Of a stretch of DNA of 64,000 nucleotides, positions 2,145 through 15,086 are shown piece after piece. How positions within the stretch are numbered: position 1 is the stretch's first letter; the number at the start of each line of letters is the position of its first letter. Made by a program: the position numbers and the translations under genes. The notes beneath the pieces were generated by a model. That model made no database searches. It was not told the origin of the DNA and worked only from the letters and a program-made list of their open reading frames with translations. The DNA comes from Jiulongibacter sediminis (lineage in GTDB: Bacteria; Bacteroidota; Bacteroidia; Cytophagales; Spirosomataceae): assembly GCF_001306455.1 (NCBI RefSeq), contig NZ_LGTQ01000006.1, positions 620,001 to 684,000 on the forward strand, read 5' to 3'.

Positions 2145-5126
2145 ATGAATCTGACCCGTTTTTATCCCTCACTTATTCTGAGGACACCGACTTTGCCCGA
2201 AATCCAGAGATTAGAAGAAAAGGATGTCCTTGAAAAGCTGAAAGAACCCGAATTTTTGGAGGCAGTATATATTGCTTCCCCTAACCTCTATTACTCAATA
2301 ACCAATCTCGATGCTCTTTCTGGAAAAGATTACCGAAATACTTTATTTTCGGCAGCTAAATATATTTTGCGGGCAAGCGGACGTTGCACTCCTTTCGGAT
2401 TATTTTCTGGAGTTGGGCTTTGCGATTGGGGAGAAACAACCAATCTAAAAGTTAAGCCCAAAACCAGTAGGGCAACTAGGTTCGATATGAGCTTTCTTTG
2501 TTCGGTTCAGAAAAGACTGGAGGAGGATATTTCGGTAAAAAAAAACCTGAAGTACTTTCCGAATAGCAGTATTTACAGGTTAGGGGGGCAGTTGAGGTAT
2601 GTGGAGTACTCACAAAGTTCAGGTAAAAGGAGTTACCAAGTTTCAGCTATTGAAGAGAATGAGCTAATTGACGAGGTCTTTAGGAAGATTGGCGAAGGCC
2701 TTACATTTGATCAGGCCGTTTTGGTCATTAGGAATTGTGGTTTTGAAAAAGACGAGTCAGAGGAGTTTATAGAAGTATTGATTGGAAATCAAATCCTGGT
2801 CAGCGAATTGGAGCCTTCTGCTACGGGGAATGGGTATTTTGAAAAATTACTTGAATCAGCTTCAGGCACCTCCTATTTCGATCCGCTTCAAAAGTTACAA
2901 GAACTTCTTAGTCAGCTGGATCAAAGAAAGGTCAATGCAGAGCAGAATTTCAAAGAAATTTACGATCAGATTGAAGATCTGGGTTTTCCGTATTCACACA
3001 AAGCTCTCTTTCAGGTAACTTCGTTTCAAGATATAAGAGGGACGGTCAACAAGAGTTATGAAGATGAGTTATTAGAAGTTGTTGACCTTTTAGGGAGATG
3101 TTCATTCCTAAAGACTTCAAACTCACTGGGCAAGTTTGCAGAGGAATTTTATCGCAGATATGAGGAGCAGGAAATACCTCTTTTGGAGGTTTTAGATGAC
3201 GAAATCGGGATCGGATTTGGCAATAATTCTGACTTTGTGGCTCCCTTATTGGAGGGCGTCATTTCTGATAAAGGCTCGTTCAAACCTGATCTCAAAATTG
3301 TTGCTTCTGAATACAAAATGTTTCAAAATCTCTTACGAAACGAGGAGTATGAGATTCCATTGATTGAATTTATTGATTGTGTAGAAAATGAGGTTAGTTT
3401 GGCACCAACTTACTCTTTAATCTTCAGGTTGATTGAGAAAAACAAGTTGCTTTTTGAAATGGCTGGAGGAAGTAGTGCTTTGAATCTTTCTGCCAGATTT
3501 GCTGAGGCTAACGAAGAGCTAAGACAGAAGCTAATCAAAATCGCTGAGGATGAGCAGGAAAGTTCAGAATCAGTTTTAGCCGAAATTGTTCATTTCCCTC
3601 AGGAAGAAGTAGGAAATATTATTTATCGCCCTGCCTTCCGGAAATATGAAATTCCATTTTTAGCACATTCTGATGCGACCAAAGGTAGTCAAATTGCAGC
3701 CCGGGATTTAATGGTCTCAGTGAAAGGAGACAATATTATCCTGCGTGACAAAGTTAGTGGCAGGTCGGTAGTTCCAAGGCTTTCAAATGCTCATAATTTT
3801 GCTTTTCAGAGTCTTCCTTTGTACCAGTTTCTGGGAGAGCTCCAAACTCAGGGATTTCAGAACGGCCTACAATTTGGTTGGCCATCTTGGGCAGAGGAAT
3901 TTCCCTTTCTACCACGGGTTTCACACAAAAATGTTATCGTCAAAAGAGCGGAATGGAATCTAAATGAAGACGATATTTTGGGCATTCAAAAAATAACCTC
4001 AATTGAAAAGTTTGAAGCCTGGAGGTTAAAAAGGAATATTCCAGATAAGGTAATTATCGTGGAAGGAGACAATGAGTTGGTGATATTCTTTCATTCTGAT
4101 TTTGTGCTGGATTTATTCCGAAATGAAATTAAAAACAAAAAGAAAGTTAAGCTTTTGGAATATCTCGGTCATTCGGGTCACATAACTGACTTTGATTCAA
4201 AAAAAATCTTTGCGAACCAAATGGTTGGGTGGGTGAATTCAGGGGGGCAGATCAATGAATCGAAGGTGCCTGAGAAGCCCTCTGGTGAAACTGTTAAGCG
4301 TATTTGGGATCCAGGTTCGGAATGGCTTTATTTTAAACTCTACTGTTCCGAAAAAACTGCTGATAAGATTCTTATAAATACAATCTACCCTCTTGTTCGG
4401 GACTTAAAGTCCAAAGAGCTGGTTAATATCTGGCATTTTGTAAGGTTTAATGATCCTGATTCTCATTTACGTATTCGGTTTCTTATCAAAAGCAGGGAGG
4501 ACTTCTCTGCTGTTATGGGAGTGGTGCAAGAAAGTCTGAAGGGCTTTTTGAATGACAGATTCATTCAAAAAGTTCAGCTAGAATCTTATCACAGGGAATT
4601 GGAAAGGTATGGTGCAAAGAATATAGAGATTGCCGAAGCAATTCATGACCTAGATTCAGGTTTTATATCTTACCTTTTGAGTCAGTTTGAAGGCGATGAG
4701 CGAGAAGAATTCAGATGGAAAGCTGCTATAAAAATGGTGGACCTATATCTATCGGCTTTCAATTACACATCTCAGCAGCAGAAGTATGAACTTGCAGAAA
4801 GAAATCGTAGAGCCTTGTTGAATGAGTTCAGGGTGTCTAAATCAGAAAAGAGGCAACTAGATCAGAAATTTAGGTTAAAAAGACAGTTGATAGAAGATAT
4901 ACTGACATCAGGGGAAAATGAAATTTACGATGATTTCTCCAGACGATTAGGATCTTTGTTAGAAGGCTTGGAAGAAGCAACCGATTTAATAAAAGATAAC
5001 CTCGTTTCAACGTTTATTCATATGAGTATCAACCGATTTATATTAACCGAGCCTCGTAGGCATGAAATGATCATTTATGACATGATCTCACGTTTTTATC
5101 GATCGGCCATAGCCAAAATGAAGTGA
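2145..5126 (+). CDS. lanB: Full-length class I lantibiotic dehydratase (LanB-like)
   Basis: 993 codons from the ATG at 2145; an in-frame TTG at 2124 would add seven residues but is a poorer start. The length matches complete LanB enzymes, which activate Ser/Thr of a precursor peptide with glutamate from Glu-tRNA and then eliminate glutamate to leave dehydroamino acids. The N-terminal domain holds RCTPFGLFSG; the R and T (about 80 and 82) match the glutamylation residues Arg87 and Thr89 of NisB. The C-terminal thiopeptide-type domain (about 730-985) holds DSHLRIRF, YHRELERYG and FIHMSINRF, matching the elimination residues of NisB (Arg784, Arg786, Glu823, Arg826, His961). Both half-reactions therefore look intact. 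No LanC or transporter is adjacent; the gene is followed by convergent LytTR genes, and a possible precursor lies at 7075. The family is firm; the substrate is inferred. Confidence 0.93.
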   Translation: MNLTRFYPSLILRTPTLPEIQRLEEKDVLEKLKEPEFLEAVYIASPNLYYSITNLDALSGKDYRNTLFSAAKYILRASGRCTPFGLFSGVGLCDWGETTNLKVKPKTSRATRFDMSFLCSVQKRLEEDISVKKNLKYFPNSSIYRLGGQLRYVEYSQSSGKRSYQVSAIEENELIDEVFRKIGEGLTFDQAVLVIRNCGFEKDESEEFIEVLIGNQILVSELEPSATGNGYFEKLLESASGTSYFDPLQKLQELLSQLDQRKVNAEQNFKEIYDQIEDLGFPYSHKALFQVTSFQDIRGTVNKSYEDELLEVVDLLGRCSFLKTSNSLGKFAEEFYRRYEEQEIPLLEVLDDEIGIGFGNNSDFVAPLLEGVISDKGSFKPDLKIVASEYKMFQNLLRNEEYEIPLIEFIDCVENEVSLAPTYSLIFRLIEKNKLLFEMAGGSSALNLSARFAEANEELRQKLIKIAEDEQESSESVLAEIVHFPQEEVGNIIYRPAFRKYEIPFLAHSDATKGSQIAARDLMVSVKGDNIILRDKVSGRSVVPRLSNAHNFAFQSLPLYQFLGELQTQGFQNGLQFGWPSWAEEFPFLPRVSHKNVIVKRAEWNLNEDDILGIQKITSIEKFEAWRLKRNIPDKVIIVEGDNELVIFFHSDFVLDLFRNEIKNKKKVKLLEYLGHSGHITDFDSKKIFANQMVGWVNSGGQINESKVPEKPSGETVKRIWDPGSEWLYFKLYCSEKTADKILINTIYPLVRDLKSKELVNIWHFVRFNDPDSHLRIRFLIKSREDFSAVMGVVQESLKGFLNDRFIQKVQLESYHRELERYGAKNIEIAEAIHDLDSGFISYLLSQFEGDEREEFRWKAAIKMVDLYLSAFNYTSQQQKYELAERNRRALLNEFRVSKSEKRQLDQKFRLKRQLIEDILTSGENEIYDDFSRRLGSLLEGLEEATDLIKDNLVSTFIHMSINRFILTEPRRHEMIIYDMISRFYRSAIAKMK

Positions 5127-5132
5127 AAGTAA

Positions 5133-5843
5133 TTACTGCATAATCTTACTTTCCAGAACTTTAAAGAAACGATCACGATAGGTGACTCCAAGTGGTATAC
5201 GAGCATCAGAATCCGTAAGCATAATTTCACCCCCATCTAAATGGTTGATCTGGTCAAGAGAAACAATGAATGATTTGTGAGCTCTGAAAAAATGATCTTC
5301 TGGTAAACGTTCTTCCAGCTCTTTCATCGTGAGCAAAGTAACTATCCTTTCGCCCTGCAAGGTGTATATAGCGACGTAATTTTTTAAAGATTCTATGTAA
5401 AGAATATTTTCAAACTTAATTCTCACATACTTACCCTTTCTGTCTGTTTTAACCATGATGTAGTCATCAATGGTATTACTTGCCGTTTTATTCGCCTTTC
5501 TACGACTGGTTTTTTGAGTTGCTTCGTAAAAGCGTTCAAATGATATCGGTTTGGTCAGGTAATCCACAACATCATGTTTGAAACCTTCAAGGGCATACTC
5601 AGAATAGGCAGTGGTTAATACCACCATAGATTTCCCTTTTAATAATTCCATAAAAGTTAAACCTGTAATGGTCGGCATATTGATATCAAGGAAAATGAGA
5701 TCAACATCATTATTCTGTGCAAAATCCAATGCTTTTACCGAGTCAGAGAAAGACTCAATAAGGTGAAGCGATGGAAGTTTCTCAATATAACCTTCGATGA
5801 TTTCAATGGCAATTTTTTCATCATCGACAACAATGCAATTCAT
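5133..5843 (-). CDS. LytTR-family response regulator
   Basis: 236 residues. The receiver domain (1-120) is intact: the acidic pair in IVVDDEK, the phospho-acceptor Asp53 in LIFLDINMP, the Thr in VVLTTAYS, and the Lys in YLTKPISF. The C-terminal LytTR DNA-binding domain (about 130-232) has the usual IKFENILYIESLKNYVAIY and FFRAHKSFIVSL. It is 48 bases downstream of its histidine kinase on the same strand, so the two form a cytoplasmic regulator/sensor pair. Only six bases separate its stop from the end of the convergent LanB gene. The pair is a plausible regulator of the LanB/peptide locus, by position only. Confidence 0.93.
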   Translation of the reverse strand: MNCIVVDDEKIAIEIIEGYIEKLPSLHLIESFSDSVKALDFAQNNDVDLIFLDINMPTITGLTFMELLKGKSMVVLTTAYSEYALEGFKHDVVDYLTKPISFERFYEATQKTSRRKANKTASNTIDDYIMVKTDRKGKYVRIKFENILYIESLKNYVAIYTLQGERIVTLLTMKELEERLPEDHFFRAHKSFIVSLDQINHLDGGEIMLTDSDARIPLGVTYRDRFFKVLESKIMQ

Positions 5844-5891
5844 GTTGGGGAGTTTTGATGTACGAAATACAATTAAAGGTATACATATTTT

Positions 5892-6980
5892 TTATTTCTG
5901 CCATACTACGGAGAGATTTACCTCATAAATATCTTCCGTGTCATTCACAGCTAAATCAAAGCTTTTCTCATAGAGCATAGAAAGTCTTCTTTTTATGTTG
6001 GCAACACCAACTGCTGTTGTTTCGCGGTCGGCAAAATCTTTTCTTTTCAGATTCCTACATTTGAAAAGCATATCTTCTTGAGTTACCTTTAAGGAGATGT
6101 CTATTGGGTTTGCCGGATCATCAATAACTCCATATTTAAAAGCATTCTCCACGATTGACATTAACACCAATGGTGGCAAAGCAAAGAAAGGGAAAAGGCC
6201 CTCTTTAACAAATTGGACACAAACTCTGTCCTGAAACCGGATTTTCTGAAGCTCTATGTATTCGTCTATCGCATCCACCTCTTTTTTGAGATTTGATTTC
6301 TCATTTTTGGTACTCTCTACAGAGTATCTCATGAGATTGGTGAGCTTTAGAATTGCTTTTCCTGCACGTTCACTTTTAGGTGCTACATCACCATATACGA
6401 AGTTCAATGTATTGAAAAGAAAGTGAGGATTAATCTGGGCTTTTAAAAAGTTTAACTCCGTTTTGAATAGTTGTTTTTCTGTTACAATTCTAAGGTTCTG
6501 CTCCTGGGTCCTTTGTAAATAGATCCAATAAGCAAAGGCGTACAGTCCGGAGGTTGAGAACCGCCAAACCTCGAAGATGAAAAATCGAACGAATGTGTTC
6601 TCTAATGAATTATTTAATGAATCTACAGCTCTTTCATACTCAATAATGTAAATCTGCCATAAACAATTCGCCAAAGCAGAAGTCATGATAATAAACACCG
6701 CAAGAGGCAAGCCAATTATTGGTTTTTGGGGGAGAAACTTGACGTATATAGAAACAACCGAATAAAAAGTTAGGATATATAGAAAAGCTGAGCTGAAGTA
6801 AATTGCATAAAATTCAAATCCTGTCCGGTCTTCGAATCCAAGAACAAAGCCAAAATCAATGAGATAAAAAACACACCATCCTAAGAAATGTTTCTTGATT
6901 TCTATTTTATAGGTGGCAATGAAGCTGCGAATCCTTGAAAAAGTAGCTTGCATACCGAATAAGCCTTTATGGATGGCCAA
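5892..6980 (-). CDS. LytS/YehU-type sensor histidine kinase
   Basis: 362 residues. Four hydrophobic segments (about 31-50, 57-80, 88-112, 133-155) make an inner-membrane sensor with almost no extracytoplasmic domain. The His_kinase domain follows with the phospho-acceptor His186 in QINPHFLFNTLNF and the N-box SIVENAFKYG near 282. There is no classical HisKA dimerisation domain, as expected for kinases that pair with LytTR regulators. The first Met (6980) is used; Met10 (6953) is also possible. It probably forms one transcript with the LytTR gene downstream and diverges from the short peptide gene at 7075. The signal it senses is unknown. Confidence 0.92.
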   Translation of the reverse strand: MAIHKGLFGMQATFSRIRSFIATYKIEIKKHFLGWCVFYLIDFGFVLGFEDRTGFEFYAIYFSSAFLYILTFYSVVSIYVKFLPQKPIIGLPLAVFIIMTSALANCLWQIYIIEYERAVDSLNNSLENTFVRFFIFEVWRFSTSGLYAFAYWIYLQRTQEQNLRIVTEKQLFKTELNFLKAQINPHFLFNTLNFVYGDVAPKSERAGKAILKLTNLMRYSVESTKNEKSNLKKEVDAIDEYIELQKIRFQDRVCVQFVKEGLFPFFALPPLVLMSIVENAFKYGVIDDPANPIDISLKVTQEDMLFKCRNLKRKDFADRETTAVGVANIKRRLSMLYEKSFDLAVNDTEDIYEVNLSVVWQK

Positions 6981-7074
6981 TCAGTTAATTGGTGTAAAAA
7001 ATTATTCTATTCGAATCGCGTATGTGACCTTTGGCATAGTTAAAGTTTACTACAAAAAATAATTAATAATAGCT

Positions 7075-7191
7075 ATGCAAAAGCAAAACCTTTCAATTCG
7101 CAAGACAACAGTAGTTAAAATGTTTAATTCAAACAAGACTGCGGCATCAGGTTGTCATACAATACCTTATTGTCATACAATACCGTATTAA
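7075..7191 (+). CDS. Putative class I lanthipeptide (RiPP) precursor with doubled CHTIPY core
   Basis: 38 codons from ATG to TAA. The N-terminal part begins MQKQNLSIRKTTVVKMF, which follows the leader pattern of Bacteroidota class I lanthipeptide precursors (roughly K-x-LSLKK-T-x-AKLN). After SNKTAASG the C-terminus is two exact copies of CHTIPY. Each copy has one Cys and one Thr, as a lanthionine-forming core needs. The two 18-base units differ at one position, a silent third-codon change (CCT/CCG), so they are in frame and consistent with coding. The gene lies 2 kb from LanB, diverges from the LytTR kinase and precedes an atypical LuxR-type regulator by 94 bases. No strong ribosome-binding site is seen, which is usual here. 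The alternative is that the repeat is a tandem operator (TTGT-N3-ACAA twice). Family assignment is by eye. Confidence 0.55.
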   Translation: MQKQNLSIRKTTVVKMFNSNKTAASGCHTIPYCHTIPY

Positions 7192-7285
7192 TATTTTTTT
7201 ATGAATTTTTAGTCAAAAACATTTCGGTTTTTGGCACGTTTTTGAAGGTTTAATATCCAAAGCGAACAATTAAACCTTTAAAAGT

Positions 7286-7933
7286 ATGAAAATCACAATA
7301 GCTCATAAGAGCACTTTTTTCTGTCAGCTTCTCAGAGAGTCTTTACAAAGTAGAAATTATGAAGTTGATTCATATGCTACTTCAGGAGAGTCGGCAAGAA
7401 AGCAGATAGAAACATCGAAGCCAGACATTGCCATTATAGCTTTTCCCTTACCGGGAATGAATGGCATTGAATTGGTAAAAAAAATAAAGGAATCTGGAAG
7501 TGCGAGCAAGATATTGTTCATGTCTCAGGATTCTATGGAAGCAAAAGAAGTTGTTAACAGTCTTTCTGTTGAAGGTCATGTTATGTCAACCGACAGTATG
7601 AGTCAATTCTTCTTTGCTCTTCATGAAATTACTGCAGGCAGAGCGTATGTTTCACCTAATGTGGAGAAGTTGCTGATGGATTCTGGTTCCATGAAAATTA
7701 GTTCAATGGTAGATGACTCACTTTTAGGTCTTCTTACTCCAAGAGAACTGGAGATAATGAAGGCTTTGTCAGAGTCATGCACCACCCCTGAGATTGCTCA
7801 GAGATTTACAATCAGTAAAGCAACAGTAAACAATCACAGGGCTAATATTATGAACAAGCTGAAATTAAAGGGAAGGAATCAGCTACTTGGTGTGGCGATA
7901 TCTTTAAAGCCCTATTATTCTATATCGGCATAG
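7286..7933 (+). CDS. NarL/LuxR-type regulator with degenerate receiver domain
   Basis: 215 residues. The C-terminus (about 148-208) is a standard LuxR/GerE helix-turn-helix (LTPRELEIMKAL, TPEIAQRFTISKATVNNHR). The N-terminal 120 residues align with a NarL receiver domain (KPDIAIIAFPLPGMNGIELV), but the phospho-acceptor Asp is Ala52, the acidic pair near the start is replaced (ITIAHKS), and the conserved Lys is Ser101. It therefore probably cannot be phosphorylated in the usual way and may respond to a ligand or protein partner, or be constitutive. It follows the short CHTIPY peptide gene on the same strand. Upstream is an A/T-rich stretch without a perfect -7 element. Confidence 0.88.
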   Translation: MKITIAHKSTFFCQLLRESLQSRNYEVDSYATSGESARKQIETSKPDIAIIAFPLPGMNGIELVKKIKESGSASKILFMSQDSMEAKEVVNSLSVEGHVMSTDSMSQFFFALHEITAGRAYVSPNVEKLLMDSGSMKISSMVDDSLLGLLTPRELEIMKALSESCTTPEIAQRFTISKATVNNHRANIMNKLKLKGRNQLLGVAISLKPYYSISA

Positions 7934-7950
7934 AAAACTGATATAGACAA

Positions 7951-7966
7951 TACACGAATTCGTGTA
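7951..7966. promoter_or_regulatory. 16-bp perfect palindrome, likely operator
   Basis: TACACGAATTCGTGTA is a perfect inverted repeat. It ends one base before a TATATTTG -7 element (7968-7975), so it covers where a -10 to -30 regulator site would be. The bound protein is unknown; the upstream LuxR-type regulator is an obvious candidate. Confidence 0.5.
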
Positions 7967-7967
7967 A

Positions 7968-8295: not shown

Positions 8296-9498
8296 ATGTC
8301 TGCAGTACATCAAGTAGCCGACCGTATCCTGAACCTTGAGGCTTCAGCTACACTTGCGATGTCCCAAAAATCACGTGAGTTACGTGAGCAAGGGATTGAT
8401 GTTATCAACCTATCAATCGGTGAGCCCGATTTCAAAACTCCTGAGCACATTTGTGAGGAAGCCAAAAAGGCAATTGATGCCGGTTTTCACTCATATACTC
8501 CGGTCCCTGGTATTCCTGAGTTGCGAAAAGCTATTGCAGACAAGTTTAAACGCGACAATAATATCGACTGGAAACCTGAGAATATCGTGGTTTCAACAGG
8601 TGCTAAACATTCATTGGCAAATGCTCTGGCTGTGATGGTAAACCCAGGTGACGAGGTGATCATTTTTGCTCCATACTGGGTGAGCTACTCTGAAATGGTT
8701 AAACTGGCAGAAGGAAAGTCGGTTATTCTTAACGGTTCTTTTGAAAATGGTTTTAAGGTAACACCTGAGCAGCTAGAAGCAGCTATTACTGATAAAACGA
8801 AGGTGATCATGTTCTCTTCACCGTCAAACCCAACGGGTGCTGTTTTCAGCAAAGATGAATTGACGGCTATAGCGAAAGTGATTGAAAAACACGAGAATAT
8901 ATATGTATTGGCTGATGAAATTTATGAATACATCAACTTTATGGAAGAAGGTCATTTCTCAATTGGCTCAATCTCTTCCATTAAAGACCGTGTTATTACA
9001 GTAAACGGAATGGCAAAAGGATTTGCTATGACTGGCTGGAGGATTGGTTATATCGGTGCCGCTGAGTGGATCGTCAAAGGAATTACAAAACTGCAGGGTC
9101 AGGTGACCTCAGGAACTAATCATATTGCTCAGAGAGCCTCCGTAGTGGCTTGGGACGATATGACTGCCGCCGAAACTATGAAGAGAGCCTACCTTGTTAG
9201 GAGAGCACTTGTAGTTGACGGTCTTAGATCAATTCCTGGCTTTAAGGTTAATGTACCGGATGGTGCTTTCTATGCCTTCCCTGATATTAGTGATTTCTTC
9301 GGTAAGTCTGATGGTGAGATTACGATCAAGAACAGCGACGACTTCAGTCTTTATCTACTGGAAAAAGCTCACGTAGCCACTGTAGCAGGCGAAAGTTTCG
9401 GAGCTCCGGACTGTATTCGTATTTCTACTGCAGCCTCTGACGAGTCTCTTGAAGAAGCGATTGAAAGAATCAGAAAGGCTAGTGCTAATTTGAAGTAA
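8296..9498 (+). CDS. PLP-dependent class I aminotransferase (aspartate aminotransferase type)
   Basis: 400 residues, fold type I. Visible marks: VINLSIGEPDFKTPEHI near the N-terminus, SSPSNPTGAVFS, LADEIYEYINF, the PLP-binding Lys near 240 in NGMAKGFAMTGWRIGYIGA, and the C-terminal CIRISTAASDESLEEAIERI. This is the Ib group of aspartate/aromatic aminotransferases, which moves amino groups between aspartate or aromatic acids and 2-oxoglutarate in the cytoplasm. The exact substrate cannot be read from sequence. It stands alone, with its own promoter element, leader hairpin and downstream terminator. Confidence 0.93.
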   Translation: MSAVHQVADRILNLEASATLAMSQKSRELREQGIDVINLSIGEPDFKTPEHICEEAKKAIDAGFHSYTPVPGIPELRKAIADKFKRDNNIDWKPENIVVSTGAKHSLANALAVMVNPGDEVIIFAPYWVSYSEMVKLAEGKSVILNGSFENGFKVTPEQLEAAITDKTKVIMFSSPSNPTGAVFSKDELTAIAKVIEKHENIYVLADEIYEYINFMEEGHFSIGSISSIKDRVITVNGMAKGFAMTGWRIGYIGAAEWIVKGITKLQGQVTSGTNHIAQRASVVAWDDMTAAETMKRAYLVRRALVVDGLRSIPGFKVNVPDGAFYAFPDISDFFGKSDGEITIKNSDDFSLYLLEKAHVATVAGESFGAPDCIRISTAASDESLEEAIERIRKASANLK

Positions 9499-11869: not shown

Positions 11870-13108
11870 TTGAAAAAGCTATTTGCGGGTTTTGCGATTC
11901 TAATTTTGCTGAATAGCTGTTCAGTTCAAAAGCGTTTCTCAAAGATTTTACCACAGAATCAGGGTTTTCACCAAGGTTTCATTTTCATTGATTTTGAGAC
12001 GGGAGATACGCTCTTTCAAAAAAATGCAGATAAGTATTTTGTGCCAGCTAGTACCACAAAGCTTTTTACGCTTTATTCAGCCACCCATTTTCTTCTGGAT
12101 AGCCTTTTGGCTTTTCAATATCTTGAAACACCGGATACTCTTTATGTAAGAGGAGCTTTTGACCCTTCTTATCAACATCCTGATTTTAAAAGAGAATACC
12201 CGGTTTTAACAGGAAACAAGCCCATTGTTCTTGATAACAGCCTTTACATCGGACCGGCATACGGGCAGGGCTGGATGTGGGACGATGCAGCAGATAATTA
12301 CCAGGTAGCTCTTTCGGCTTTTCCTGTTTATGGGCAGTTGCTGAAAGCCGAAAAATCTGAGGAAGGGCTACATTTTGAACCAGATTTTTTTGAGAAAACC
12401 GACCAAGATCTTGAAAAAATTATTCCATTAGGCAAAGGTTTTGAAATTGAGACTTTGGCCATTGGCGAAAAGGTTTCCTTTCCAATGATCATGAATGATC
12501 AATTGCTTTCAGGTATTCTTAGTAAAGACTTGGGAACAAATGTTTCAATAGGCGAAGCACTGAACGTAGACTCTTATAAAAATCAATATTCTGTATCTCT
12601 CGATTCGGCGTTGATCTATATGATGCACCGAAGTGATAACTTCTTTGCGGAACAATTACTTCTTCAATCGGGTCTGAAAATGTTTTCGGATTCCATCAAT
12701 ACCGGAAAAATTATTGAGCGACTTCTTCAGAACGAATTAATGCATCTTCCTCAAAAACCACGTTGGGTTGATGGTTCGGGACTTTCAAGGTATAATTTGT
12801 TTACTCCAAAAGACCTCACAACAATTGTCAGCCTAATAGAAAATGAGTTGGGTTTTGAACGTCTGAAAACTTTTTTACCGACCAACGGCTTAAATGGAAC
12901 CATGAAGACATTTGCCGAAGAAGAAGCCCCGTTTATTTATGCTAAGTCGGGTTCTATGAGTGGAGTTTATAATTTGGCCGGGTTTATGAAAACCGACAAA
13001 GGCAGGCTGTTGCTTTTTGGGGTAATGAATAATAATTTCACTCAGTCCGTGAGCAAAACCCGTTCTGAAACAGCGGATTTCCTGATTGAGGTAAAATCAA
13101 GATTTTAG
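11870..13108 (+). CDS. dacB: D-alanyl-D-alanine carboxypeptidase/endopeptidase (PBP4 family, peptidase S13), lipoprotein
   Basis: 412 residues. The start is TTG at 11870; it opens a lipoprotein signal (MKKLFAGFAILILLNSCSV, lipobox LNSC) that a later start would destroy. The three penicillin-binding motifs are present: Ser61-x-x-Lys64 in PASTTKLF, Ser-Asp-Asn near 254 in HRSDNFFAEQLL, and Lys-Ser-Gly near 359 in YAKSGSMSG. The enzyme trims or cuts peptide cross-links of peptidoglycan. Its 3' end overlaps the convergent gene at 13105 by four bases. Confidence 0.92.
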   Translation: MKKLFAGFAILILLNSCSVQKRFSKILPQNQGFHQGFIFIDFETGDTLFQKNADKYFVPASTTKLFTLYSATHFLLDSLLAFQYLETPDTLYVRGAFDPSYQHPDFKREYPVLTGNKPIVLDNSLYIGPAYGQGWMWDDAADNYQVALSAFPVYGQLLKAEKSEEGLHFEPDFFEKTDQDLEKIIPLGKGFEIETLAIGEKVSFPMIMNDQLLSGILSKDLGTNVSIGEALNVDSYKNQYSVSLDSALIYMMHRSDNFFAEQLLLQSGLKMFSDSINTGKIIERLLQNELMHLPQKPRWVDGSGLSRYNLFTPKDLTTIVSLIENELGFERLKTFLPTNGLNGTMKTFAEEEAPFIYAKSGSMSGVYNLAGFMKTDKGRLLLFGVMNNNFTQSVSKTRSETADFLIEVKSRF

Positions 13109-13871: not shown

Positions 13872-15086
13872 TTATGAGGTATGAATGATTCCATTGATGA
13901 CGAAATAGCGGAGGTTACCGTTTTCGGTCAATGCGAAGTTAGCCTTTTTTTCAAAGGCTAAACGATCTGTATCGCCTACTTGTTCTTGATACTTTGTTAA
14001 TATTTCTGAAAAGTCGGAGAGGGGCTGAACCGTGAGGCCGGTTCCGTCAAAAGTTTCGATTCCGAAAAAAGTGCTCAGGTCGCCAAGGTCTTCCACCGAG
14101 CTTTCAAGAGTATATGAACTGGCATCTTCGTTATTTTTTTCATTGAGGTAAATACCAATATCGATGGCTTGCCCTTGGTATTCAACATTTTTTATCAGCA
14201 GGTCAAAAAGACATTTGGTGTTGAGCGGAATCGCTTCGTATTCTTCCAGCTTTCTATCTGTATAATTCTGTTTTGCAATGGCTTCCAATGCTATTAGGAT
14301 CACCAGAAAATTGAGTTTTCTCAACTCCATTTTCTCCCTGTTTTGGCCGTTTCCACCACTTTCGATCAAAATCAGGCTGCTACCCCATTTTTGTATATTA
14401 TCACCGAAGGCTCTGGGTTCAAATTCATCAGAAAAGCGACCCACTTTTCCTGGAATCAATGATTGAAGAACATCATTCATTTCACAAATTACCTGCATGG
14501 CCCGTGTACGGTTTGGGTTCCACTCACAGGTGGTGTTATAGGCAGTGGCCAAAAATGCGATGGAAGCCTGGTTTTCAGTTTGGCCGGCTGCCCAACGGAC
14601 GTCCTGATCATGGAGATTGAAAGAAAAGGCAGGTTTTAGTTCATCCTGCATTTTTTTGAGAAGGCGACTTTCAGGGCAGGCCAAAGCAAGAGCATCGCGG
14701 TTCATGTCAATCTGCTGAGCGGTTCGCCGTATAAACCGCTCGGCCCCGTCGGGGTTGAGCATCGGGATAAAATGCAGTTCCAGCGAATTGAGAAGAAGTT
14801 CTGTAAACTCGTTTTTGATTTTTGCGAAAAAATGAAACAGATCAAACAAGGCCATCGTGGCCGTGGCCTCATTGCCGTGCATTTGTGACCACAGCAAAAT
14901 CTTGACAGGTCCATTTCCCCAACGGAACTTATAGATGTCCTGATCTTCAAAGGACTGACCGATCACTTCCTTTTTCAGAGAAGAGGCCTCGATCAATGGC
15001 AAAAGATCGCGGTGTTTAAACCGGCGGTGCGTAAAAAAGGGCTCTTTGACTTCTTCGTAAATATTCAGGATTTCCGCAGGGCTCAC
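13872..15086 (-). CDS. M14-family zinc carboxypeptidase
   Basis: 404 residues from a GTG start. Zinc ligands His70 and Glu73 are in WSQMHGNEATATMALFDLF and the third His is in FSFNLHDQD. The substrate-binding motif MLNPDGAERF...MNRDA and the catalytic Glu in LILIESGGNG are also visible, so the peptidase looks active. It lacks a signal peptide, unlike many M14 members, and so probably acts in the cytoplasm on peptides. A C-terminal domain of about 130 residues has no clear match. It is the first gene of a two-gene transcript with the CarboxypepD_reg protein. Confidence 0.88.
   Translation of the reverse strand: MSPAEILNIYEEVKEPFFTHRRFKHRDLLPLIEASSLKKEVIGQSFEDQDIYKFRWGNGPVKILLWSQMHGNEATATMALFDLFHFFAKIKNEFTELLLNSLELHFIPMLNPDGAERFIRRTAQQIDMNRDALALACPESRLLKKMQDELKPAFSFNLHDQDVRWAAGQTENQASIAFLATAYNTTCEWNPNRTRAMQVICEMNDVLQSLIPGKVGRFSDEFEPRAFGDNIQKWGSSLILIESGGNGQNREKMELRKLNFLVILIALEAIAKQNYTDRKLEEYEAIPLNTKCLFDLLIKNVEYQGQAIDIGIYLNEKNNEDASSYTLESSVEDLGDLSTFFGIETFDGTGLTVQPLSDFSEILTKYQEQVGDTDRLAFEKKANFALTENGNLRYFVINGIIHTS

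What the first reader, a model, noticed from the sequence alone, without database searches (positions are those of the whole stretch)
2145..7933. Compact LanB locus with a candidate CHTIPY-doublet precursor peptide
Seen: a complete LanB (both catalytic halves) and, 2 kb away on the same strand, a 38-codon gene whose leader follows the Bacteroidota class I lanthipeptide pattern (KQNLSIRKTTVVKMF) and whose C-terminus is CHTIPYCHTIPY. Each unit has one Cys and one dehydratable Thr. A LytTR sensor/regulator pair lies between them. Known: such leaders are used by LanB enzymes in Chitinophaga (pinensins) and relatives. Inference: this is a minimal RiPP system making a tiny two-ring or dehydrated peptide. 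I do not recall this core as described.
Basis: partly seen in the sequence, partly recalled or inferred. Interest (0 to 1): 0.85.

Follow-up and report, generated by a model that had tools for sequence, protein, structure and literature searches.

The report
Dehydrated peptide paired with a sensor
A small gene in this bacterium probably makes a short chemically dehydrated peptide, and because a matching sensor sits beside the same kind of enzyme again and again in distant bacteria, the peptide may be a signal between cells rather than the ring-shaped antibiotic that the enzyme family is known for.

Summary
An intact full-length LanB (2145-5126) and a real 38-codon gene (7075-7191) ending in CHTIPYCHTIPY flank a LytTR regulator and a histidine kinase on the other strand. 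The short frame is conserved beside LanB in relatives: four HTIPF units in G002, two STIPIP units in G049, the same leader with another core in G146; repeat copies differ almost only by silent changes.

The lanthipeptide reading does not hold well: Cys is missing from two of these four precursors, and PF05147 found no LanC in the four genomes.

Wider, LanB beside an HK/LytTR pair recurs in Bacteroidota and Holophagaceae: 24 of 53 assessable loci, 21 of them without LanC within 3 kb, against 7 of 29 others. Candidate precursors lie at 28 of 29 such LanBs; 25 are Cys-free, three candidates are weak. Most Bacteroidota LanB-linked kinases form a clade without the window genome's 12 other kinases. 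Promoters carry LytTR-like repeats, clear in Holophagaceae, only statistical in Bacteroidota.

Best explanation: a LanB-made, Dhb-containing, largely ring-free peptide sensed by its own two-component system (0.5). Chemistry, export and sensing are inferred.

The parts
2145..5126 (+). Full-length LanB (glutamylation plus elimination domains); in-frame TTG at 2124 possible start
   Evidence: PF04738, PF14028, TIGR03891; only PF04738 match in the genome; profile matches NisB structures, E 8e-67
5133..5843 (-). LytTR response regulator
   Evidence: PF00072 plus PF04397; kept beside LanB in G002, G049, G146
5892..6980 (-). PF06580 (LytS-type) membrane histidine kinase; the G002 homologue suggests the true start is the ATG at about 6953
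   Evidence: PF06580; model with N-terminal helices and no separate periplasmic domain, mean pLDDT 82; LanB-linked clade
6989..6997 (+). TTGGTGTAA, candidate LytTR half-site between kinase and precursor
   Evidence: Same 9-mer upstream of precursors in Hymenobacter and Mucilaginibacter; 1 of 300 shuffles as good. No 21-bp partner here, and two TTSGTGTAA in the window are no more than chance
7075..7191 (+). Precursor peptide gene, 38 aa
7075..7152 (+). Leader, LSIRKTTVVKM (LxLxKx5L type); cleavage point unknown
   Evidence: L6, R9, K10, T11, T12, K15 invariant in five aligned precursors
7153..7170 (+). Core unit 1, CHTIPY
7171..7188 (+). Core unit 2, CHTIPY (one silent change from unit 1)
7286..7933 (+). 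LuxR-type regulator with a degenerate receiver domain (phospho-acceptor Asp replaced)
   Evidence: PF00196, PF00072; A/N/S at the Asp position in three homologues, HTH kept

Best explanation
The locus is a compact peptide-signal cassette. LanB binds the leader of the 38-residue precursor, glutamylates the Thr of each HTIPY unit with Glu-tRNA and eliminates glutamate, giving Dhb-Ile-Pro units. With no LanC found in the genome and no conserved Cys, lanthionine rings are not the purpose; a protease frees one or more short Dhb-containing peptides. The membrane kinase at the locus senses them, the LytTR regulator then acts on the promoter region between kinase and precursor, and the LuxR-type pseudo-receiver may be an output. 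Shown: anatomy, conservation of the frame and repeats, recurrent pairing of LanB with this kinase/regulator type, Cys-free candidate precursors, no LanC found, LytTR-like repeats. Inferred: dehydration, cleavage, export, sensing, the loop.
For: Frame and repeats conserved with mostly silent substitutions. Of 19 family LanB loci fetched, three have an adjacent HK/LytTR pair (G002, G049, G146) and these three have this peptide type; two others (L071, L080) have other leader-like frames. No LanC found in G000, G002, G049, G146. HK plus LytTR within 1.8 kb of LanB in 24 of 53 loci with at least 3 kb of flank; 21 of 24 lack LanC within 3 kb against 7 of 29 (Fisher p 5e-6, relatedness not corrected). 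Kinases expected that near by chance: 0.02-0.04 per LanB in four genomes. At least 7 changes of the kinase-linked state on the LanB tree. Linked kinases of the window, G002, G049, Leadbetterella, Hymenobacter, Chitinophaga and Mucilaginibacter share a supported group holding none of 12 paralogues. Candidate precursor in 28 of 29 such loci, 25 Cys-free. Holophagaceae: direct repeat (about -128 and -106) plus inverted copy (-83) before 12 of 12 precursors. Bacteroidota: 21-bp repeat spacing upstream of 17 precursors, 0 of 200 shuffles; LytTR sites are 9-11 nt repeats 11-13 nt apart (PMC4847170 passage).
Against: No transporter or peptidase gene lies between YebC and AspAT. Of the next five genes none is a transporter; two are carboxypeptidase-type (PF02113 at 11870, PF00246 at 13872), not obviously related. 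The window's own precursor carries two Cys, G049's one. Spacing 35 bp also beats the shuffles. The window has one candidate half-site without a 21-bp partner, and two TTSGTGTAA in 64 kb are no more than chance. Hymenobacter L087, L093, L108 and Chitinophaga L110, L111 have LanC within 3 kb and yet a Cys-free precursor. The strict motif scan found only 7 frames in the 26 TCS-only loci, two of them likely spurious (L142 15249, L150 12887). The L114, L128 and L142 candidates were picked by eye. Kinases of this type are common, 13 in this genome. The structure search matched kinase domains only among the rows shown. Both trees are quick ones with long-branch warnings. Synteny from YebC to AspAT in G000, G002, G049 may partly be plain shared ancestry.
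Confidence: 0.5

Rival explanations
1. The product is a secreted dehydrated peptide that acts on other microbes or the envelope; the kinase/regulator pair controls its production but does not sense it.
For: LanB products are often antimicrobial (recalled); regulators are among the common genes of lanthipeptide clusters (PMC7268733, passages). Repeats would raise yield.
Against: No transporter or immunity-like gene seen from YebC to AspAT; the pairing favours one kinase group that holds none of 12 paralogues.
Confidence: 0.2
2. One reading: each Thr is dehydrated and captured by the Cys of a unit, without or with an unrecognised cyclase, giving two small methyllanthionine rings.
For: The window's two units each have one Cys and one Thr; G049 has one Cys. 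Ring closure can be non-enzymatic (recalled).
Against: 0 Cys in G002 and G146 precursors beside homologous LanB and kinase; PF05147 finds no LanC in G000, G002, G049, G146 but does in G041, G152, G164.
Confidence: 0.12
3. The peptide acts inside the cell: the modified peptide is the ligand of the neighbouring LuxR-type pseudo-receiver, and the kinase/regulator pair only sets supply.
For: The pseudo-receiver lies 94 bp downstream on the same strand in the window and lacks the phosphorylation Asp in all three homologues.
Against: No LuxR match in the G146 locus, which keeps LanB, LytTR, kinase and peptide.
Confidence: 0.1
4. The kinase/regulator pair is unrelated to LanB and the peptide; the three only stayed together by slow rearrangement.
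For: YebC, the cassette and AspAT keep their order in G000, G002, G049.
Against: The pair adjoins LanB in G146 between other genes and in Mucilaginibacter, Chitinophaga, Hymenobacter, Chryseobacterium, Parapedobacter, Spirosoma and Holophagaceae, with several changes forced on the tree; G001 has no match to any cassette part within the 16.5 kb fetched around its AspAT.
Confidence: 0.08

Closest known systems
Class I lanthipeptides of Bacteroidota (pinensins; Runella RuiA, Chryseobacterium ChmA)
   Same: LanB with both reactions; LxLxKx5L leader (PMC7268733, passages). Runella and Chryseobacterium peptides were fully dehydrated in E. coli when a Bacteroidota tRNA-Glu/synthetase pair was supplied (PMC9993889, abstract and passages).
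   Different: No LanC found, no conserved Cys, no GG site, LytTR pair at the locus, short tandem core units. Pinensins use a split LanB (PMC7268733 passage).
Peptide pheromone two-component systems of Gram-positive bacteria (Agr, Com; recalled)
   Same: Works like: small precursor, one modifying enzyme, membrane kinase and LytTR regulator in one locus; in Holophagaceae the precursor lies directly upstream of kinase and regulator on the same strand.
   Different: The modifying enzyme is LanB, not AgrB or a transporter; the kinase is PF06580; phyla are Bacteroidota and Acidobacteriota.
Nisin-type autoinduction (NisRK; recalled)
   Same: A LanB product sensed by a kinase pair.
   Different: Nisin is Cys-bridged and needs LanC; regulator types differ.

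Membership tests
Class I lanthipeptide | LanB with glutamylation and elimination domains | tested here: met
   PF04738 and PF14028 over nearly full length; R76, R80, D114, R776, R778, E818, R821, H959 invariant in 12 LanBs; their catalytic role is recalled from NisB work
Class I lanthipeptide | Leader motif LxLxKx5L of Bacteroidota precursors | tested here: met
   LSIRKTTVVKM in the window, L or F at the last place in the four relatives aligned
Class I lanthipeptide | LanC cyclase | tested here: not met
   PF05147 absent in G000, G001, G002, G049, G146; present in 3 of 8 genomes searched
Class I lanthipeptide | Cys in the core for thioether rings | tested here: inconclusive
   2 in the window, 1 in G049, 0 in G002 and G146
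Class I lanthipeptide | (Methyl)lanthionine rings in the product | not testable with these tools
   Needs mass spectrometry
PEARL pathway (LanB that adds amino acids) | Small LanB without elimination domain (recalled) | tested here: not met
   Elimination domain present
Peptide-pheromone two-component system | Precursor, modifying enzyme, membrane kinase and regulator encoded together | tested here: met
Peptide-pheromone two-component system | Regulator sites at the precursor promoter | tested here: inconclusive
   Clear in Holophagaceae, 12 of 12; statistical only in Bacteroidota; one half-site in the window
Peptide-pheromone two-component system | Secreted peptide activates the kinase | not testable with these tools
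   Needs reporter assays

The most novel reading that the evidence does not exclude
LanB dehydratases have been recruited repeatedly, in Bacteroidota and in Acidobacteriota, to make a class of Cys-free, Dhb-bearing peptide pheromones that are read by dedicated LytS/LytTR pairs: a ring-free branch of LanB chemistry and a modified-peptide quorum-sensing family for these Gram-negative phyla. The window holds a compact multi-unit version.
Probability: 0.42. Interest if true: 0.9.

Novelty: new variant of a known kind. Interest (0 to 1): 0.74.

Why it matters
At least two surveys of class I lanthipeptides started from LanC (PMC7268733; PMC3091789, a NisC-led screen; passages of both), and the first did not count as lanthipeptides some precursors that lack Cys (said there of LanM-linked ones). 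LanC-less, Cys-free loci like these would fall outside such searches. If the reading is right, LanB has a second job, making dehydrated signals, and Bacteroidota and Holophagaceae would have a testable peptide signalling family with its receptor named in advance. Ten searches of the held open-access library (at most 20 papers listed each) listed no title or abstract opening that describes such a system; subscription papers, such as Caetano 2020, were not available.

Tried and rejected
Leader or core models: no NCBIfam match to the peptide at E up to 10; the only Pfam match, DUF5049 at E 0.098, is far below its cut-off.

Finding more TIP-type peptides: profile A3 over 390 genomes of the order gave 16 genomes at E up to 0.05. 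Only G000, G049 and G479 are strong; G479 carries the same peptide as Hymenobacter L087, which is in the profile. The second G049 hit overlaps an epimerase-like long frame. The TIP type was seen in three genomes only.

Empty site: G001 has AspAT with different upstream genes, so no clean empty site.

Geothrix: my first conserved-frame choice was not the precursor; the precursor frame came from six-frame reading. 12 of 16 Holophagaceae-type loci scanned gave a precursor; L117, L123, L124, L156 did not.

Structure: the rows shown of the kinase model's PDB search are kinase domains, giving no clue to the ligand. The second prediction job was not used.

Repeat spacing: 25 spacings were tried; 21 and 35 bp both beat all 200 shuffles; only 21 was expected beforehand.

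Considered and dropped: plain coincidence of a short frame; PEARL pathway.

Dropped rows: one search kept the best 80 of 125 relatives; 27 of those 80 lacked 3 kb of flank on both sides and were left out of the LanC test; 9 duplicate loci and LanBs shorter than 2.7 kb were left out of the trees; L111 was left out of the promoter set, L150 and L160 of the 9-mer test, L152 of the Holophagaceae pN/pS.
Full report
WHAT IS THERE. The window reads YebC (-), LanB (+, 2145-5126), LytTR regulator (-, 5133-5843), histidine kinase (-, 5892 to about 6953), precursor (+, 7075-7191), LuxR-type regulator (+, 7286-7933), aspartate aminotransferase (+, 8296-9498). LanB has both Pfam domains over nearly its full length, is the only PF04738 match in its 4.47-Mb genome, and its profile matches NisB structures at E 8e-67 and 9g04 at E 6e-91. 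Residues that by recall are needed for glutamylation and elimination in NisB have counterparts invariant across 12 LanBs: R76, R80, D114, R776, R778, E818, R821, H959 (the printed NisB alignment is cut before the last). The peptide is 38 residues and ends CHTIPYCHTIPY; it is the only frame of the window ending in a perfect tandem repeat.

IS THE SHORT GENE REAL. Among 222 genomes of the family, 117 have a LanB match but only G002 (E 3.4e-6) and G049 (E 8.1e-5) have a clear peptide match besides the window (next hit E 0.076). Both lie 2 kb downstream of LanB with the same seven genes. G002 reads MNNSTLVIRKTTVAKLNNSSKSNQRNSNHTIPFDHTIPFNHTIPFNHTIPF and G049 MRKINLQIRKTTVAKFNNSAKNSTKSWSTIPIPCSTIPIP. 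A fourth, in G146 (a Leadbetterella assembly by its match), sits beside LanB, LytTR and kinase between other genes: MKTQKLSIRKTTVSKFSTRINQQGRTSLNPPTGLPNS. Repeat copies differ mostly by silent changes: 5 of 5 in G049, 4 of 4 between copies 3 and 4 of G002, 1 of 1 in the window; copy 2 of G002 has N to D. Simulated chance of all-silent change is about 0.0004 for the first two.

WHY NOT A PLAIN LANTHIPEPTIDE. Cys is absent in G002 and G146, and G049 has one for two units. PF05147 finds no LanC in G000, G001, G002, G049 or G146, though the same search finds it in G041, G152 and G164. The leader fits the Bacteroidota class I motif LxLxKx5L (PMC7268733, passages) but has no GG site. That survey started from LanC domains.

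THE WIDER PATTERN. A scan of named genomes with the LanB alignment confirmed 125 relatives and kept the best 80. I built LanB, LanC, kinase and LytTR profiles and measured distances. In the 53 loci with at least 3 kb of flank on both sides, 24 have kinase and LytTR within 1.8 kb of LanB. LanC lies within 3 kb in 3 of these 24 and in 22 of the 29 others (Fisher p 5e-6; three other threshold pairs gave 4e-9, 5e-6 and 9e-5). The loci are not independent: 10 of the 21 LanC-less ones are Holophagaceae and 6 Mucilaginibacter. On a tree of 76 LanBs, supported branches force at least 7 changes of the kinase-linked state, so the pairing was formed or lost several times; the tree is a quick one and warns of long branches, among them L079. 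Kinases expected that near by chance are 0.02-0.04 per LanB in four genomes.

THE PARTNER PEPTIDES. For the 29 kinase-linked LanB rows I found a candidate short precursor in 28 (none in L124). 25 have no Cys; the window has 2, G049 1, and the weak Spirosoma candidate L142 1. Examples: Mucilaginibacter ...DPTNTTITVLTTVSG..., Chryseobacterium ...NPTSISISSSFF, Geothrix LSFRKESIQRSS...KPFSFTTVLTTQG; also Hymenobacter L087 ...PAYFTTVSSLAF, where LanC is present and the kinase is 2.3 kb off. The L114, L128 and L142 candidates rest on my eye alone. In Holophagaceae-type loci, 12 of 16 scanned gave a homologous Cys-free precursor directly upstream of the kinase gene. Precursor pN/pS is 0.54 (11 Holophagaceae), 0.13 and 0.49 (two Mucilaginibacter groups). 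By contrast, of 42 motif-matched frames near LanC-linked LanBs 38 carry Cys, many with GG leaders; of the four without, L087 and L108 (Hymenobacter) look real and two look spurious. The same strict scan shows only 7 frames in the 26 TCS-only loci, two of them likely spurious; the Mucilaginibacter and Holophagaceae precursors do not pass it, so those rest on conservation within their groups.

A DEDICATED SENSOR. In a tree of 51 kinases, those linked to LanB in the window, G002, G049, Leadbetterella, Hymenobacter, Chitinophaga and Mucilaginibacter fall in one supported group of 18 (13 linked, 1 at 2.3 kb, 4 farther off in LanB loci: L071, L122, L154, a second kinase of L128). None of the window genome's 12 other PF06580 kinases is inside. 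Other linked kinases (Parapedobacter, L114, Chryseobacterium, Spirosoma; Holophagaceae; L092) fall elsewhere, so recruitment seems repeated. The tree is a quick one with long-branch warnings. The window kinase is modelled (mean pLDDT 82) with four helices before a long helix and no separate periplasmic domain; the PDB matches shown are kinase domains.

PROMOTERS. LytTR regulators bind two 9-11 nt repeats 11-13 nt apart (PMC4847170, passage). All 12 Holophagaceae precursors have a GAANGG-type repeat at about -128, AACGGTT at -106 or -105 and an inverted copy at -83. In 17 Bacteroidota upstream regions (three of them of weak candidates), direct repeats at 21-bp spacing exceed all 200 shuffles (118 against 103.2, sd 3.7), though so does 35 bp (115 against 101.5, sd 3.7), which I cannot explain. 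TTGGTGTAA is shared by 4 of 15 upstream regions, the window's at 6989-6997 among them (1 of 300 shuffles). In the window alone the motif is no commoner than chance, and it has no 21-bp partner there.

THE PSEUDO-RECEIVER. The LuxR-type regulator after the precursor lacks the phosphorylation Asp (A, N, S in the three homologues), while its DNA-binding half is highly conserved; which residues matter is recalled. The G146 locus has no match to it.

MECHANISM AND LIMITS. I infer Thr dehydration by LanB, release of short Dhb peptides, sensing by the local kinase and feedback through LytTR. No chemistry, export, cleavage or sensing is shown. No transporter or peptidase lies between YebC and AspAT; two carboxypeptidase-type genes follow at 11870 and 13872, with nothing to tie them to the cassette. 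Runella and Chryseobacterium precursors were fully dehydrated in E. coli with a Bacteroidota tRNA-Glu/synthetase pair (PMC9993889, abstract and passages), so the first test is feasible.

PRIOR WORK SEEN. PMC7268733, PMC10352776, PMC9993889, PMC8895600, PMC4847170, PMC3091789: passages only. A 2010 survey noted a two-component regulator near a Chitinophaga lantibiotic operon (PMC3091789 passage). Ten searches of the open-access library, at most 20 papers listed each, listed no title or abstract opening on Cys-free LanB precursors paired with LytTR systems.

Noticed in passing
L063, L065, L066, L069, L070, L072, L075, L083, L085, L086, L088, L107 (Arcicella-like LanBs): A group of LanBs with neither LanC nor a kinase pair nearby (12 of the 14 'none' rows); their precursors were not found.
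   Followed up: no
L154 5549-6574 and 14274-14468; L080 11540-12025 and 1826-2029: RiPP loci that seem to hold both Cys-containing precursors near LanB and a separate low-Cys or Cys-free precursor near a kinase pair, as if one LanB served a product and a signal.
   Followed up: no
L087 12478-12624, L093 13336-13470, L108 6448-6582 (Hymenobacter): Cys-free precursors beside LanB although LanC is present within 3 kb; what LanC does there is unclear.
   Followed up: partly
window 7286-7933; L062 10156-10812; L079 12973-13638: LuxR-type regulator with a degenerate receiver, seen next to the three TIP-type precursors and not at the G146 locus.
   Followed up: partly
window 7959-7967: Second TTSGTGTAA, just downstream of the LuxR-type gene.
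   Followed up: no
17 Bacteroidota precursor upstream regions: Direct repeats at 35-bp spacing also exceed all shuffles.
   Followed up: no
window 11870-13108 and 13872-15086: Two carboxypeptidase-type genes (PF02113, PF00246) a few kb past the precursor; a link to peptide maturation is untested.
   Followed up: no
L106, L114, L153: Contigs labelled Limnohabitans, Neobacillus and Beijerinckiaceae carry LanBs that group with those of Bacteroidota; probably misbinned contigs or transfers.
   Followed up: no
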